Below, one piece after another: positions 40,417-52,888 of a stretch of 64,000 nt of DNA (the first letter of the stretch is position 1; each line of letters begins with the position of its first letter). The notes under the pieces were generated by a model that saw only the letters and a list, made by a program, of their open reading frames with translations, was not told where the DNA came from and did no database searches. Made by a program: the position numbers and the translations under genes. The stretch is from positions 62,001 to 126,000 of the forward strand of contig NZ_FQUC01000006.1 of assembly GCF_900128985.1 (NCBI RefSeq), given 5' to 3'. The DNA comes from Indolivaga macrotermitis. GTDB taxonomy: Bacteria; Bacteroidota; Bacteroidia; Bacteroidales; Dysgonomonadaceae.

Positions 40417-41490
40417 ATGTACGAATTTGACAGGAATAAACAAACCATAGCCATCGAAGGCAAAACCTATTCAGGTAAAGACTTCGGAAAAATACCGGAT
40501 AGTGGAGATAAACTATTCCGTCGCAGCTTATACACATTTCTGCATGAATGGTTTTCCGACAGCCCGACACTATCTGTACAAACATCCGGCTCAACAGGTA
40601 TTCCCAAGGAAATACTTATCGAAAAAGATCGAATGATGCAAAGTGCCCGTTTAACTTGCTCTTTTCTCGGCTTAGAAAAAGGCGACACGGCTTTGTTATG
40701 TATGGACTTAAAATATATCGGCGCCAAAATGGTGGTTGTCCGTTCTTTAATTGCCGGATTGAACCTACATATAATACCTCCATCGGGTAATCCGCTAAAA
40801 CAAACAGACATCCCATATGATTTTGCAGCTATGGTTCCTCTCCAAATCTACAATAGCCTGCAGGACGAAATCGAAAAAGAGCGGCTTTCAAATATCAAGC
40901 ACCTGATTATAGGAGGAGGCGCTATTGATCCGAATATTGCCACAGCAATACATAGTTTTCCTAACAATGTTTACTCAACTTATGGTATGACAGAGACTCT
41001 GTCTCATATCGCTCTACGCAAACTTAACGGAGCAAATGCTTCTGACAGATACTTCCCTTTCGAGTCTGTATCATTATCCTTGTCTGACGATAATACCCTT
41101 ATCATAGATGCTCCTCTGGTTAATCCCGAAAAGCTACATACCAATGATATAGCCGAACTTCTCGATGATGGCAGCTTCCGTATTATCGGACGCAAAGATA
41201 ACATTATCAACAGCGGGGGTATCAAAATACAGATTGAAGAAGTGGAGAAACAACTCAAACAGATAATTCCTGTAAGTTTTGCAATCTCATCCCTACCCGA
41301 CCCCAAGTTTGGCGAAATAGTTGTATTAGTAATAGAGGGAAGCTTTGATATCGATGAATCTGTGATAGCTAATACACTTCCCCCATATTCTACTCCTAAA
41401 AAGATTATTAGTGTTGATACCATACCTTTAACCGAAAACGGAAAGATCAGCAGGGCTAAACTCAAAGAACTAATCCTAAAAGCCTATTAA
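40417..41490 (+). CDS. menE: o-succinylbenzoate-CoA ligase MenE (short form)
   Basis: This AMP-forming ligase activates o-succinylbenzoate. Motifs are TSGSTGIPKEILIE (P-loop), STYGMTETLSHIA, IGRKDNIINSGGIKIQ and the C-terminal ENGKISRAKLKEL with the adenylation lysine. At 357 residues it is about 100 shorter than the MenE of E. coli or Bacillus; the N-terminal subdomain is reduced. All catalytic motifs survive, so it should be active. It is the last gene of the men operon and overlaps the convergent minus-strand gene by 4 bases. menH, menA and a thioesterase are not in this cluster. Confidence 0.93.
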   Translation: MYEFDRNKQTIAIEGKTYSGKDFGKIPDSGDKLFRRSLYTFLHEWFSDSPTLSVQTSGSTGIPKEILIEKDRMMQSARLTCSFLGLEKGDTALLCMDLKYIGAKMVVVRSLIAGLNLHIIPPSGNPLKQTDIPYDFAAMVPLQIYNSLQDEIEKERLSNIKHLIIGGGAIDPNIATAIHSFPNNVYSTYGMTETLSHIALRKLNGANASDRYFPFESVSLSLSDDNTLIIDAPLVNPEKLHTNDIAELLDDGSFRIIGRKDNIINSGGIKIQIEEVEKQLKQIIPVSFAISSLPDPKFGEIVVLVIEGSFDIDESVIANTLPPYSTPKKIISVDTIPLTENGKISRAKLKELILKAY

Positions 41491-41702
41491 CGGTTATTTG
41501 TCAGATATTTAGGATTAACCCCAAATGAGTGGAAACTGGCACTTGTCTCTTTCAGACACGAAGGGCACAGGCAGCTTTCATAATTCTCCTTCACATAATC
41601 ACGTACACCTGAAATCAGATAAACACGGGTGCAACTGCACAAATCTGTACGGTCTTCGCGACACACAAAGCTGTTAGAACAGCGTGGACATATTTTTTTC
41701 AT
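41487..41702 (-). CDS. small cysteine-rich CWC-type protein
   Basis: This 71-residue protein has the cysteine pattern of the cysteine-rich CWC family: MKKICPRCSNSFVC, then DLCSC, then SCLCPSCLKE. It has at least eight cysteines in CxxC-like pairs. A zinc-ribbon-like fold is likely and the function is unknown. I use the ATG at 41702; a TTG start three codons earlier is possible. Its stop overlaps the end of menE by 4 bases (convergent), so transcripts from the two genes must overlap. Confidence 0.75.
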   Translation of the reverse strand: MKKICPRCSNSFVCREDRTDLCSCTRVYLISGVRDYVKENYESCLCPSCLKETSASFHSFGVNPKYLTNNR

Positions 41703-41758: not shown

Positions 41759-42262
41759 TCAAAACAGTTTTACTCCTAAATCTCTTATTTGCTTTATGCC
41801 CTTGACACTTTTCTTACGAAAAAAAAGCGCTACTACACAGATGCCTATAGCCAGGCAAAATAATAGAGACGATGTCAGAATAAAATTATATACCGTATCT
41901 TGCAGTAAAACAGGGTAAGTATACCCGGTTCCTTCTTCATAAATCCGGATACAGCCAAGCATAGTCCTATAAGCATACAAACCGGGAATCATTGTAATAC
42001 AAGCAGGTAAAGTATAAACTACAGGAGGGGTGTGAATCCGGTGCGCACAATATATACCGGCTAAGCCAATAAAAAGTGCCCCCGATAAAGTAGAAGCTAT
42101 CAGACCAAAATCGTATTGTAGCATCACATAGCGAATACAATGCCCTAATCCTCCGAGAACACCTGCTACCCACAAAGCCCTTTTAGGAGTTTCGAATAAC
42201 AGAGCAAAGCCAAATGCCACAAAAAAGCTTAATGCTATATCTTTCAGAATATCTATCAACAT
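41759..42262 (-). CDS. yjjB: YjjB-like subunit of a two-part threonine/serine exporter-family transporter
   Basis: This 167-residue membrane protein has about four or five TM segments, resembling the C-terminal half of ThrE and E. coli YjjB (DUF3815). Shared landmarks are a phenylalanine/alanine-rich first helix followed by ETPKRALW, GGLGHCIRYVML, and ITMIPGLYAYRTMLG. E. coli YjjPB is reported to export succinate, whereas Corynebacterium ThrE exports threonine and serine. The gene lies 3 bp after its YjjP-like partner on the same strand. Both are downstream of a cobalamin riboswitch. Confidence 0.88.
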   Translation of the reverse strand: MLIDILKDIALSFFVAFGFALLFETPKRALWVAGVLGGLGHCIRYVMLQYDFGLIASTLSGALFIGLAGIYCAHRIHTPPVVYTLPACITMIPGLYAYRTMLGCIRIYEEGTGYTYPVLLQDTVYNFILTSSLLFCLAIGICVVALFFRKKSVKGIKQIRDLGVKLF

Positions 42263-42265
42263 ACA

Positions 42266-43048
42266 TCAAAAATTACTTATTCCTATCAAATTCATACTTA
42301 AGAACATTCCAACTGCAATACATAAAAGAATAAATCCACCGAAAGCACCTCTGGCAATCGCAACCGGTATATATCCTTCGATCAGATCGATAATACAGTT
42401 TATTAACGGTACCCCGGGAATCAAAAATAAAACAGCGGTAGCCACTCCTATTTCCGGGAATTGTCCCCAGTTTAATACAGTATCAATACCTGAGATCGTT
42501 GTAGTTATAAATGAAGAAAATACAATGGCAATCATTAAGTTAAAACGGCGGCTCACCATTTCCTGCCGGACAGCCAGCCCTATAAATGAAGCTACAAATG
42601 CAAATAAGCCATTTATCCAATCACCACCGGCGAGCAAACAAAGGCAACCACAAGCAATACCTATAAAGAAACGGACTCTCCATACAGGATATTTTGCCAA
42701 TACGCGCAATTCATGAAGTTGATTTTCCAGCCCCGATAAATCCTTTTTCTGCTCCAGAAACTCCCATGTAAGGACACTCGTATCAGTCAATATTCCAAAA
42801 TGGGCGCCATGATGTTTTACCCTTCGATTAATAGTTACAGTATTTGCCTCATCATCCACATCGATTACAGTGACCGATATAGCTGTAAACGTCAACAGCA
42901 TTTCAACTTTAAAACCATAAGTATCCGCTATCCGGGTGACATTGCGACTAATCCGTTCACAATGAGCCCCCGATTCGAGAAGTAATGTAGCAACTTCCAA
43001 TACAGAATAAGCCAAACGCCTGGCTGATATTTCCATATCAATTTTCAT
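42266..43048 (-). CDS. yjjP: YjjP-like subunit of a two-part threonine/serine exporter-family transporter
   Basis: This 260-residue protein has a soluble N-terminal part (RRLAYSVLEVATLLLESGAH, TFTAISVTVIDVDD) followed by five TM segments. It ends with VLFLIPGVPLINCIIDLIEG and an Ala-Arg-Gly helix (IARGAFGGFILLC). Length, order and the PGxPLIN motif match E. coli YjjP (DUF1212), which works with YjjB in succinate export. It could instead move threonine or serine like ThrE. It is the first gene after the cobalamin riboswitch, whose 3' end is about 185 bases upstream, and is followed 3 bp later by the YjjB-like gene. Confidence 0.88.
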   Translation of the reverse strand: MKIDMEISARRLAYSVLEVATLLLESGAHCERISRNVTRIADTYGFKVEMLLTFTAISVTVIDVDDEANTVTINRRVKHHGAHFGILTDTSVLTWEFLEQKKDLSGLENQLHELRVLAKYPVWRVRFFIGIACGCLCLLAGGDWINGLFAFVASFIGLAVRQEMVSRRFNLMIAIVFSSFITTTISGIDTVLNWGQFPEIGVATAVLFLIPGVPLINCIIDLIEGYIPVAIARGAFGGFILLCIAVGMFLSMNLIGISNF

Positions 43049-43100
43049 TTATTATAAATATTTAGAACGAGACAATTTCCACAATGCTTCAAACAAGACC

Positions 43101-43232
43101 TTATTCTTCCGAATGTAGCCAACGAGCACAACTTATAATACAAGCTGATACTTCGAACCGATTAAGCACAATAGAAATTAATTTCCAGCGATCTGTTTTT
43201 ATTCCTCGAAAAACAGAATCATACATTATCAT
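43101..43232 (-). CDS. possible 43-aa leader ORF between riboswitch and yjjP
   Basis: The minus strand reads MIMYDSVFRGIKTDRW and ends CARWLHSEE. It starts exactly at the 3' end of the cobalamin riboswitch and stops 52 bases before yjjP. Nothing resembles a known protein. It may be chance, or the translated target of the riboswitch that couples to yjjP. Confidence 0.2.
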   Translation of the reverse strand: MIMYDSVFRGIKTDRWKLISIVLNRFEVSACIISCARWLHSEE

Positions 43233-43412
43233 TGGCAGGTTTTCTGACTTACTCCCATTTCAGGCGGCCTTCCCTTTTATACAAAAAGTGGCATTGGGTA
43301 TTGCCCGAAACTCAAATAACGGAGTTTACAGCAGCGGGTCTGTTCAGGATTTACACCTGATTCCCTTTTCATCATAGTTCCGAGGAATCGGAAAAATGAC
43401 ACCAATAACTTG
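43233..43412 (-). ncRNA. cobalamin riboswitch
   Basis: Read on the minus strand the conserved blocks appear in order: AAAAGGGAATCAGGTGTAAA, TCCTGAACAGACCCGCTGCT, GTAAAC, then CAATGCCACT, GGGAAGGCCG, GAGTAAGTCAG, and the closing AAACCTGCC (B12 box). TTGGTG near 43402 fits the 5' conserved GGTG. Blocks, order and spacing match the cobalamin (AdoCbl-type) riboswitch. It points at the yjjP-yjjB pair. Cobalamin binding would be expected to switch the downstream genes off. The remaining parts of 43049-43624 hold the leader ORF and the rhomboid promoter. Confidence 0.93.
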
Positions 43413-43522
43413 GTACAAATATCTAACAAAAAATCTGAAAAGTTGTTCGATCCGGAAAACTTTTTATTAACAATGCCCTCAAATGTTATCTGAACAGAAT
43501 AGTCCGATATGAAATATTTTGA

Positions 43523-44389: not shown

Positions 44390-45475
44390 TTAATTTATAT
44401 TTATTATATCTATAGGTTGCTGTATTGCAATATCCATTGGTATTGCTCTGTATGTAACATTCGAAAAATCAATAGTATTCAGATCGATACTCCTGATAGT
44501 GCTGTTGTACATGGTGCGGAAATAAATGATACGATGTTCCATATCAGTAGCCGAAGTCCATTGTGTGGCACTTGGTATATCTGAGGGCACTTGCCCTATC
44601 GGAAACTCTATCCCTACCGGTATATCAAAACTATTTAATATTTGAAAACATTGAAGTACAGTACTCAGAGCTGTATCTTGTTGAGGTGCTGATGTCTGGT
44701 AAAAAGCTGCACGGACAAAACGGGAGGGAGAAGTTATATCTCCCGGCATACCTAAAAAGCCACTTCCTGCGCCGAAAGACTTTAATTCGGTGTTTCCTAT
44801 ATATTTAGCTGAAGCCGTACCGGTAAAAAGATTCACATAATTATTAAGATTGGTCATATGCCACTCAAAACCCGGAGAATTTGCAAGCACCCCCAGTTTA
44901 TTTTCATAAAACACAGGAACACCATCTATGATCTCGAGTACGAGTTGCTGCCCCGACGTATCAGTGAATCGCCAATGGATAGTCGAAGCACGTGGATCTA
45001 TACTTATAACAGATACTTTTTTAACAGCTTCTTTTACTTCGCCTACTGTTTTGCATTCACCTAACAACCAAGAAACAAGTTGTAAATCGGCTATACTCTT
45101 TTCTTTTTTTGCAACATCATAGTCTTCATATTTTCCATAATTGGGGAAATAAAACAATCCGGCCGAAAGCCCCACTTCATTTAATCCTTCAGCTACAAAA
45201 TCTTTTTGTTCGACAGCCAGTCCCACATACCCATAACGGGCAGTAAAAGACATACCACCAATTCCTCCGGGAATGTACGATTGTTGAGTATGCCCTCTGG
45301 GTATAACAACATACTGGCTATTCAGATTACTTCCTCCCCATTCTATGGTACGTGCTACAATGGTAGTTTGATCTTTACTTTTCAAAGTAATACCCGTACA
45401 TGATTTGGAAGGTAATGGATTAATAAATGAAGCGGCAATAGCCAGCAACATCATAGCAGGTAGTTTTGGTTTCAT
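44390..45475 (-). CDS. linear amide C-N hydrolase (choloylglycine hydrolase / penicillin V acylase family)
   Basis: This 361-residue exported Ntn-hydrolase has a signal peptide ending LPSKS. The next residue is the catalytic cysteine (CTGITLKSKD, Cys26), so signal cleavage itself may expose the nucleophile. Family residues continue with ARTIEWGGSNL, NEVGLSAGLFYFP and VLANSPGFEWHMTNLNNY (the Asn and Tyr of the active site). Members hydrolyse conjugated bile salts, penicillin V or N-acyl homoserine lactones. The Bacteroides relatives are periplasmic. Sequence alone does not separate these substrates. It is an isolated gene. Confidence 0.9.
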   Translation of the reverse strand: MKPKLPAMMLLAIAASFINPLPSKSCTGITLKSKDQTTIVARTIEWGGSNLNSQYVVIPRGHTQQSYIPGGIGGMSFTARYGYVGLAVEQKDFVAEGLNEVGLSAGLFYFPNYGKYEDYDVAKKEKSIADLQLVSWLLGECKTVGEVKEAVKKVSVISIDPRASTIHWRFTDTSGQQLVLEIIDGVPVFYENKLGVLANSPGFEWHMTNLNNYVNLFTGTASAKYIGNTELKSFGAGSGFLGMPGDITSPSRFVRAAFYQTSAPQQDTALSTVLQCFQILNSFDIPVGIEFPIGQVPSDIPSATQWTSATDMEHRIIYFRTMYNSTIRSIDLNTIDFSNVTYRAIPMDIAIQQPIDIININ

Positions 45476-52678: not shown

Positions 52679-52680
52679 GA

Positions 52681-52753
52681 GCCTCTTGTCGGATTCGAAC
52701 CAACGACCCCGAGATTACAAATCACGTGCTCTGGCCAACTGAGCTAAAGAGGC
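52681..52753 (-). tRNA. tRNA-Thr (anticodon TGT)
   Basis: On the minus strand the acceptor arms GCCTCTT and AAGAGGC pair. The D-loop reads AGCTCAGTTGGCCAGAGC, the anticodon loop ATTTGTAA gives TGT, and the T-arm is TTGGTTCGAATCC. It is 73 bases with no encoded CCA. It begins only 4 bases after the SRP-like RNA. Confidence 0.95.
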
Positions 52754-52853
52754 AAGTGGGTAAGCTTACTATATCGCGCCGCTACAACCAACTACCCTTG
52801 CTGCGATCAAACCCTGGGGGATTAATCGGGAGCTGACCGTATAGGACTTACCC
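52754..52853 (-). ncRNA. ffs: probable small SRP RNA (4.5S-like)
   Basis: On the minus strand the ends GGGTAAG and CTTACCC pair, then CTATA and TATAG, forming one long hairpin of about 100 bases. The tip contains ATCCCCCAGGG and GCAGCAAGGGTAG, which resemble the conserved CAGG...AGCA core of bacterial SRP RNA helix 8 that binds Ffh. The apical part between CAGG and AGCA is GTTTGATCGC, the right length for the canonical UCCGGAAGGA but not its sequence. A TACCTTTG box lies just upstream. It ends 4 bases before tRNA-Thr, so RNase P probably cuts between them. Confidence 0.75.
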
Positions 52854-52858
52854 GGGCA

Positions 52859-52888
52859 CAAAGGTAGATATTTTTTTTAATATCCAAA
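52859..52888 (-). promoter_or_regulatory. promoter of the SRP RNA / tRNA-Thr unit
   Basis: The minus-strand TTTG lies 18 bases before TACCTTTG (52859-52866), close to the Bacteroides consensus. The predicted start coincides with the first G of the RNA hairpin. Confidence 0.65.

What the first reader, a model, noticed from the sequence alone, without database searches (positions are those of the whole stretch)
41759..43412. Cobalamin riboswitch controlling a YjjP/YjjB-type (succinate exporter-like) pair
Seen: a complete cobalamin riboswitch on the minus strand (AAAAGGGAATCAGG, CAGACCCGCTGCTGTAA, GGGAAGGC, GAGTAAGTCAG, ACCTGCC), followed by yjjP-like and yjjB-like genes 3 bp apart. Known: E. 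coli YjjPB is reported to export succinate; Bacteroidetes need B12 for methylmalonyl-CoA mutase to turn succinate into propionate; B12 riboswitches usually repress. Inference: with no B12, succinate builds up and the exporter is switched on; with B12, propionate is made and the exporter is off. Threonine export (ThrE-like) is the alternative.
Basis: partly seen in the sequence, partly recalled or inferred. Interest (0 to 1): 0.85.

Follow-up and report, generated by a model that had tools for sequence, protein, structure and literature searches.

The report
B12 riboswitch on a fermentation-acid exporter
A vitamin B12-sensing RNA switch sits in front of a predicted succinate-type exporter in Dysgonomonas bacteria, in a genome where the same kind of switch also sits before other fermentation genes, suggesting that the cell re-routes its fermentation when B12 runs out.

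Summary
RF00174 scores 98.4 bits (cut-off 31.5) at window 43217-43421, minus strand, followed by yjjP-like and yjjB-like genes 3 nt apart. The window is from a Dysgonomonas. In 5 of 5 Dysgonomonas genomes carrying this paralogue the riboswitch precedes it; the second, riboswitch-less paralogue is a separate clade. In this genus the same riboswitch class also precedes pflBA, a FocA-type channel gene, PEP carboxylase, a biotin carboxylase set (mmdA-pccA-bccp) and class Ib/III ribonucleotide reductases. Methylmalonyl-CoA mutase is present in 6 of 6 genomes. Elsewhere in Bacteroidales 5 of 74 examined ThrE/YjjP genes lie behind a B12 riboswitch, behind nrdDG, behind pccA-bccp-mmdA, or behind a methionine-synthase-like gene. 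Best reading: a B12-repressed bypass of methylmalonyl-CoA mutase that exports succinate when propionate cannot be made. The direction of control is borrowed from Bacteroides thetaiotaomicron data; the substrate is unproven, and threonine/serine or methylmalonate remain open. Side result: 11 of 12 CWC genes in 42 genomes lie in B12-riboswitch units.

The parts
43217..43421 (-). Cobalamin riboswitch aptamer (RF00174), full length
   Evidence: 98.4 bits, E 2.3e-23, model 1-189; orthologous aptamers in 4 other Dysgonomonas genomes
43193..43216 (-). Hairpin just 3' of the aptamer, loop CGAGGAAT; candidate expression-platform element
   Evidence: Seen. A hairpin with an RGG loop lies in the 70 nt after 44 of 55 distinct Dysgonomonas cobalamin riboswitches; 12 of 55 in the following 70 nt, shuffled mean 9.4, highest 15. 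No terminator-like site between it and the yjjP start. Role inferred
42266..43048 (-). yjjP-like gene, 260 aa, ThrE family
   Evidence: PF06738 1.9e-47; 27% identity to E. coli YjjP
41759..42262 (-). yjjB-like gene, 167 aa, ThrE_2 family
   Evidence: PF12821 3.9e-29; 31% identity to E. coli YjjB
41487..41702 (-). cwc: 71-aa cysteine-rich protein, third gene of the unit; its end overlaps the end of convergent menE by 4 nt
   Evidence: PF14375 2.2e-9. 11 of 12 above-cut-off PF14375 matches in 42 genomes lie in B12-riboswitch units

Best explanation
A cobalamin riboswitch controls a three-gene unit yjjP-yjjB-cwc. Shown by sequence: riboswitch, gene order, conservation, and the other genes behind riboswitches of this class. 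Inferred: bound cobamide keeps the unit off, so it is expressed when B12 is scarce. Inferred: YjjPB is an inner-membrane exporter of succinate (or a close C4-dicarboxylate). When B12 is scarce, methylmalonyl-CoA mutase cannot work, propionate cannot be made, and succinate becomes the end product that has to leave the cell. The regulon then acts as a set of bypasses for B12-dependent enzymes: B12-independent ribonucleotide reductases (class III nrdDG, class Ib nrdEF-type), and, for the mutase, of which I know no B12-free isozyme (recalled), a re-routed fermentation: PEP carboxylase to oxaloacetate, pyruvate formate-lyase, a FocA-type channel, and the YjjPB exporter. One of two paralogues has the riboswitch, the other does not.
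For: RF00174 98.4 bits. RS-yjjPB in 5 of 5 Dysgonomonas genomes with this paralogue; the other paralogue has no RS within 1.5 kb nor on its strand in longer stretches. Tree: RS clade (93/89) beside the RS-less clade of the family; the RS label needs 3 changes, forced by well-supported branches. Same riboswitch class before pflBA (4 of 5 near-complete genomes), PEPC (4 of 5), mmdA-pccA-bccp (5 of 5), a FocA-type gene with its own RS in G004 and behind pflA in G002 and G005 (families). Two mutase genes in 6 of 6. Outside the genus, RS-nrdDG-yjjPB (L180) and RS-cwc-pccA-bccp-mmdA-ThrE (L181, L182). Two other genomes have the RS before an AspT/YidE-family transporter; that family includes a succinate exporter by the start of the abstract of PMC9527358 (listing). 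B. thetaiotaomicron without B12 in defined medium makes 29.5 mM succinate and no propionate (PMC10881866, passages); a mutase deletion raises succinate (PMC8865466, section 7); bt1915 is repressed by 1 nM B12 (PMC8941943, passages). E. coli yjjPB is called a succinate exporter in PMC10717943 and PMC7236211 (passages).
Against: No transport or expression data for these genes. Low identity to E. coli YjjPB, and the family is named for threonine/serine export. The RS-controlled mmdA-pccA-bccp is probably not the propionate-pathway decarboxylase: in G000 another mmdA paralogue lies next to a methylmalonyl-CoA epimerase gene and has no RS. A succinate story does not explain why the RS-led set should be on without B12. 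X. ruminicola makes propionate in a B12-dependent way with none of its 4 predicted riboswitches near succinate-pathway genes (PMC11575231, abstract and passages), so such wiring is not needed. No RS-led PEPC was seen in G000, and G001 pflB has no RS within 1.5 kb. Outside the genus 69 of 74 examined ThrE genes have no upstream RS. RS-pflB was found in 1 of 30 best pflB loci of the order, the own genome. The L181 ThrE may have its own promoter.
Confidence: 0.5

Rival explanations
1. YjjPB exports threonine/serine (or a related amino acid) that overflows when B12-dependent methionine synthesis fails; the riboswitch is correct, the substrate is not succinate.
For: Both proteins match Pfam ThrE/ThrE_2. 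In G132 and G313 a gene like B12-independent methionine synthase lies between the RS and yjjPB (family typed for G132 only).
Against: Scores to the ThrE equivalog are far below its cut-off (33.6 and 41 against 550), and YjjB scores higher to the E. coli YjjB-type model (87.8 bits, cut-off 249, also not reached). Among the genes I could name behind Dysgonomonas riboswitches there is no methionine gene, but several targets there stay unidentified and MetE/MetH were not searched for.
Confidence: 0.17
2. YjjPB works with the RS-controlled biotin carboxylase (mmdA-pccA-bccp): propionyl-CoA is carboxylated, methylmalonyl-CoA cannot be isomerised without B12, and methylmalonate (an isomer of succinate) is exported.
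For: RS-cwc(-like)-pccA-bccp-mmdA-ThrE on one strand in G280 and G128; the carboxylase is RS-led in 5 of 5 near-complete Dysgonomonas genomes, and bt1915 is B12-repressed in B. thetaiotaomicron.
Against: The substrate of the carboxylase is unknown; PMC8865466 takes BT1448-50 and BT1915-17 for other biotin carboxylases (passages and section 7). In L181 a gap of about 125 nt with a promoter-like box precedes ThrE. In Dysgonomonas the two are at different loci.
Confidence: 0.13
3. YjjPB is part of cobamide, cobalt or corrinoid handling, as expected for a B12-riboswitch target.
For: In G004 RS-btuB-cbiK lies directly upstream (CbiK family). A CWC gene sits in a corrinoid-synthesis cluster of Sulfurospirillum (PMC7755780, passages).
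Against: btuB-cbiK is next to it in 1 of 5 genomes and has its own RS; BtuF/C/D-type genes (Peripla_BP_2, FecCD, ABC_tran) are present elsewhere in G000. Other partners outside the genus are nrdDG and a carboxylase.
Confidence: 0.1
4. The pair only rides along in a unit whose real target is ribonucleotide reduction (RS-cwc-nrdDG), with no B12-related role of its own.
For: RS-yjjPB-cwc-nrdDG in G004 and RS-nrdDG-yjjPB in G129.
Against: In G000 the unit has no nrdDG, and in G001, G002 and G005 RS-yjjPB stands without cwc or nrdDG behind it.
Confidence: 0.1

Closest known systems
Cobalamin riboswitch, Rfam RF00174
   Same: Full-length match, 67 bits above the gathering score
   Different: Target genes: an exporter pair plus CWC, not uptake, synthesis or an isozyme
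E. coli YjjP-YjjB (called succinate exporter in PMC10717943 and PMC7236211, passages; the primary paper, Fukui 2017, seen only as a reference)
   Same: Two adjacent genes, PF06738 and PF12821 types, colinear alignments over nearly full length
   Different: 27% and 31% identity; the E. coli pair lies next to dnaT-dnaC, and the feature table there shows no riboswitch
ThrE-type threonine/serine exporter (NF047720)
   Same: Same Pfam families
   Different: Single 468-position model there; scores far below the equivalog cut-off
B. thetaiotaomicron bt1915 riboswitch operon (BT1915-17)
   Same: Cobamide riboswitch before a biotin carboxylase; repressed by 1 nM B12 (PMC8941943, passages)
   Different: No ThrE gene is mentioned there in the passages I read; in G280 and G128 a ThrE gene follows an operon of this kind
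X. ruminicola KHP1 B12 response (PMC11575231)
   Same: B12-dependent propionate formation by the succinate pathway
   Different: 4 predicted riboswitches, none near succinate-pathway genes (abstract and passages)

Membership tests
Cobalamin riboswitch RF00174 | Covariance-model score above the gathering score, full length | tested here: met
   98.4 against 31.5 bits, model 1-189
Cobalamin riboswitch RF00174 | In cis, same strand, upstream of a coding gene, kept at orthologous loci | tested here: met
   5 of 5 Dysgonomonas orthologues
Cobalamin riboswitch RF00174 | Binds cobamide and changes expression | not testable with these tools
   No binding or expression data for this leader
Cobalamin riboswitch RF00174 | Recognisable expression platform (terminator or sequestering element) | tested here: inconclusive
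   Hairpin 3' of the aptamer, shared across the genus above controls; no terminator-like site before the yjjP start
YjjPB / ThrE transporter family | PF06738 plus PF12821 halves in adjacent genes | tested here: met
   3 nt apart
YjjPB / ThrE transporter family | NCBIfam equivalog cut-offs for ThrE (NF047720) or YjjB type (NF007391) | tested here: not met
   33.6 and 41 against 550; 87.8 against 249
YjjPB / ThrE transporter family | Succinate (or threonine/serine) export activity | not testable with these tools
   Needs a transport assay
B12-independent bypass regulon | Riboswitch also controls B12-independent substitutes for B12-dependent enzymes in the same genus | tested here: met
   nrdDG RS-led in G000, G002, G005 and behind yjjPB-cwc in G004; class Ib reductase in G004 and G005
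B12-independent bypass regulon | The B12-dependent enzyme to be bypassed (methylmalonyl-CoA mutase) is present | tested here: met
   Two PF01642 matches in each of 6 genomes
B12-independent bypass regulon | B12-dependent ribonucleotide reductase (NrdJ) and methionine synthase (MetH) are present | not tested
Cobamide uptake (btu) system | TonB receptor, BtuF/C/D or corrinoid-binding lipoprotein in the unit | tested here: not met
   Unit is yjjP-yjjB-cwc; btuB-cbiK is a separate RS unit beside it in 1 of 5 genomes

The most novel reading that the evidence does not exclude
Dysgonomonas uses cobalamin riboswitches as a fermentation switch: without B12 it turns on PEP carboxylase, pyruvate formate-lyase, a formate channel and a YjjPB succinate exporter, so that one RNA sensor class decides between propionate and succinate plus formate. 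A small cysteine-rich CWC protein is a general, unrecognised marker and partner of such B12-starvation units.
Probability: 0.4. Interest if true: 0.8.

Novelty: new variant of a known kind. Interest (0 to 1): 0.64.

Why it matters
Whether gut-type Bacteroidales release succinate or propionate depends on B12, and PMC11575231 (abstract) suggests for X. ruminicola that this is controlled after translation, with no riboswitch near the pathway. Here another genus of the order has riboswitches on fermentation genes and on a candidate exporter. That makes a testable transcript-level link between B12 and the acid that is released, offers a candidate succinate exporter in Bacteroidales, and points to CWC as a small protein of unknown function tied to B12.

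Tried and rejected
Tried without yield: solved structures for YjjP (3 matches at E 0.45-0.52, none relevant). A named-genome scan with YjjP returned one locus only (D. capnocytophagoides). Papers holding yjjP and yjjB (5 papers) or cobalamin riboswitch plus pyruvate formate-lyase (2 papers) showed no link in their listings; the listings showed no paper that describes a B12 riboswitch on a ThrE/YjjPB gene. These searches see only open-licence PMC text, and I opened 9 papers in parts, so this is no proof of absence.

Rejected: (a) a loop-loop pairing between a 5' loop of the aptamer and the 3' hairpin: exact in G000, but by eye it did not hold in the other leaders. (b) That the 861-aa gene upstream in G001 is a BtuB receptor (my note, entry 1): Pfam gives esterase/peptidase. 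(c) A general rule that Bacteroidales put an RS before pflB or before AspT-type transporters: 1 of 30 and 1 of 30 best loci, 1.5 kb upstream; two more AspT-type loci (L313, L316) have an RS on the opposite strand. (d) That the RS-led mmdA is the propionate-pathway enzyme: in G000 the epimerase-linked paralogue has no RS.

Limits: Dysgonomonas is represented by 6 genomes, one of them 62% complete. Distances to start codons use the starts my script chose. The script missed 6 ThrE genes in 75 loci, which were re-examined. The pattern detector hit 50 of 50 loci with a known RS and nothing in 534,586 shuffled bases, but gave one hit in L044 that the RF00174 search did not list. 16 of the 74 ThrE genes had under 4 kb of upstream sequence; two ThrE matches at contig ends (G053:C34, G030:C376) were left out. 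NrdJ, MetH, MetE and PEPC without RS were not searched (cap reached). Many gene names (btu, cob, PfkB) rest on BLAST to markers that I named by sight; those that carry the argument were typed.

The hairpin count now has controls.

Full report
What is there. The window lies in a Dysgonomonas-type genome (G000, contig C3; the one named relative found is D. capnocytophagoides DSM 22835, 73% protein identity). The unit ends against the convergent menE gene and starts opposite a divergent rhomboid gene.

Conservation. Six Dysgonomonas genomes were available. Five carry this paralogue, and all five have the riboswitch 168-254 nt before the start codon that I or my script chose for yjjP. The sixth, G003, is 62% complete and has only the other paralogue. 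The other paralogue (L014, L027-L031) has no RS in 1.5 kb on either side and none on its own strand in stretches of 10-18 kb (L039-L044; one pattern hit on the opposite strand in L044 is not in the RF00174 list). In a tree of 28 YjjP halves the RS-led Dysgonomonas proteins form a clade (93/89) beside the RS-less proteins of the family, and the RS label needs 3 changes, which well-supported branches force. I left L178 unlabelled there because of a gap of about 300 nt. So one of two paralogues stands behind the riboswitch.

The regulon. One search lists 58 RF00174 matches in the six genomes, one below the cut-off. I looked at the genes behind them. By my count 25 of 58 precede cobamide uptake or synthesis genes. 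The others: 6 before ribonucleotide reductases (nrdDG in G000, G002, G005; class Ib genes in G004, with two RS in tandem, and G005), 5 before mmdA-pccA-bccp (G000, G001, G002, G004, G005), 5 before yjjPB (the same five), 4 before pflB-pflA (G000, G002, G004, G005), 4 before a 576-578-aa protein and PEP carboxylase with cwc in front (G001, G002, G004, G005), 1 before a FocA-type gene (G004), and 8 that are orphan, at a contig end or before unidentified genes. In G002 and G005 a FocA-type gene follows pflA. Families were typed: PEPC in all four genomes, PflB and PflA in G000, the formate/nitrite transporter family in G002, G004 and G005 (the FocA equivalog cut-off is not reached in G002 and G004), NrdD in G000 and G004, NrdE-type in G004, MmdA family below its cut-off in G000. 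Two methylmalonyl-CoA mutase genes are present in 6 of 6. In G000 the mmdA paralogue next to methylmalonyl-CoA epimerase (TIGR03081, above cut-off) has no RS and is the better candidate for the propionate pathway.

Outside the genus. Of 295 Bacteroidales genomes 67 have a YjjP/ThrE match at E 1e-20. I examined 74 of 76 distinct ThrE genes outside Dysgonomonas, with up to 8 kb upstream (16 with under 4 kb). Five have a same-strand RS upstream: L180 (RS, nrdD, nrdG, yjjP, yjjB; NrdD typed), L182 and L181 (RS, cwc or cwc-like, pccA, bccp, mmdA, fused ThrE; gap to ThrE about 16 nt in L182, about 125 nt with a promoter-like box in L181), and L178 and L179 (RS, B12-independent methionine-synthase-like gene, yjjPB; about 300 nt gap in L178). 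With rough assumptions 0.19 would be expected by chance (P of 3 or more 9e-4, of 5 or more 1.5e-6), but the genomes are related, so these figures are optimistic. Sixty-nine of 74 have none in the stretch examined, among them same-genus relatives of the L181 and L182 genomes (L225, L226). Two genomes have the RS before an AspT/YidE-type transporter (L270, L306). Among the 30 best loci of that family 1 has an upstream RS (the L306 gene itself), and among the 30 best pflB loci 1, the own genome, so these are not general.

The CWC protein. PF14375 gave 12 matches above its cut-off in 42 genomes; 11 lie on the same strand behind an RS (10 of 10 in Dysgonomonas, plus G128), one (G087) does not, and one match below the cut-off in G000 does not (against the RS places). 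A rough chance figure for the 10 is about 2e-19. In Sulfurospirillum a CWC gene lies between cbiA and the precorrin-2 dehydrogenase gene of the corrinoid cluster (PMC7755780, passages). This was not part of the finding.

How it most likely works. Cobamide riboswitches of B. thetaiotaomicron repress: bt1915, the first gene behind one of them, is shut off by 1 nM B12 (PMC8941943, passages). By analogy yjjPB-cwc is on when B12 is scarce. A hairpin with an RGG loop lies in the 70 nt after 44 of 55 distinct Dysgonomonas aptamers, against 12 of 55 in the next 70 nt and a shuffled mean of 9.4, and no terminator-like site lies between aptamer and yjjP start. Control of translation or another platform is therefore more likely than a classical terminator; this is inference, and PMC12751083 (passages) speaks of premature termination for B. 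thetaiotaomicron operons. Without B12, B. thetaiotaomicron in defined medium makes succinate and no propionate (PMC10881866, passages), and deleting its mutase raises succinate (PMC8865466, section 7). E. coli yjjPB is called a succinate exporter (PMC10717943 and PMC7236211, passages; the 2017 primary paper was not seen). The regulon around yjjPB then reads as a list of bypasses for B12-dependent steps, with the exporter, PEPC, PFL and the FocA-type channel standing in for the missing mutase step.

What does not fit. The RS-led mmdA-pccA-bccp set has no clear use without B12. It may make another product, or carboxylate propionyl-CoA so that methylmalonate must leave; the ThrE gene behind this operon in L182 makes that reading live. 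Deleting BT1917 in B. thetaiotaomicron gave organic acids and growth like wild type (PMC8865466, section 7). My inference is that this is expected if the gene is off with B12 in the medium; I did not check the medium. No RS-led PEPC was seen in G000, and G001 pflB has no RS. X. ruminicola manages the B12 effect without such riboswitches (PMC11575231, abstract and passages).

Noticed in passing
window 41487-41702 (-); loci in G001, G002, G004, G005, G128: CWC (PF14375) small cysteine-rich protein: 11 of 12 above-cut-off matches in 42 genomes lie in cobalamin-riboswitch units, in front of or behind nrdDG, class Ib reductase genes, PEPC, pccA or yjjPB.
   Followed up: partly
L048 9155-9362 (G000 C23:293154), L111, L080, L086: Cobalamin riboswitch before pflB-pflA in 4 Dysgonomonas genomes; own riboswitch before a FocA-type gene in L112.
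   Followed up: partly
L099, L102, L081, L117: Riboswitch, cwc, a 576-578-aa protein (no Pfam or NCBIfam match in L099), then PEP carboxylase, in 4 genomes.
   Followed up: partly
L047 8747-8956 (+), L035 7680-7886 (-), L036 13802-14006 (-): Full-length cobalamin riboswitches with no ORF of 60-70 aa or more on the same strand right behind them; the one in G000 lies beside a PfkB-type gene (named by sight), as the yjjPB locus of G001 does. Possible relics or non-coding targets.
   Followed up: no
L180 about 6976-6870 (-), L182 2073-2258 (+): Small ORFs at the place of cwc that lack several of its cysteines and give no PF14375 match in those genomes; they look degenerate.
   Followed up: no
L178 2450-3541 (+), L183 2498-3475 (-): 363-aa and 325-aa genes directly behind a riboswitch, both relatives of short B12-independent methionine synthases below the cut-offs, no Pfam match at 0.001.
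   Followed up: partly
L270 1957-3189 (+), L306 3-1334 (-): Riboswitch before an AspT/YidE-family transporter in two other Bacteroidales genomes.
   Followed up: partly
L044 3259-3400 (+): Pattern hit for a cobalamin riboswitch core that the RF00174 genome search did not list; not resolved.
   Followed up: no
window 52680-52860 (-): Bacteroidales small SRP RNA (RF04183, 120.2 bits) directly followed by a tRNA.
   Followed up: no
window 44390-45475 (-): Choloylglycine hydrolase / penicillin V acylase family protein (PF02275), below the NCBIfam equivalog cut-offs.
   Followed up: no
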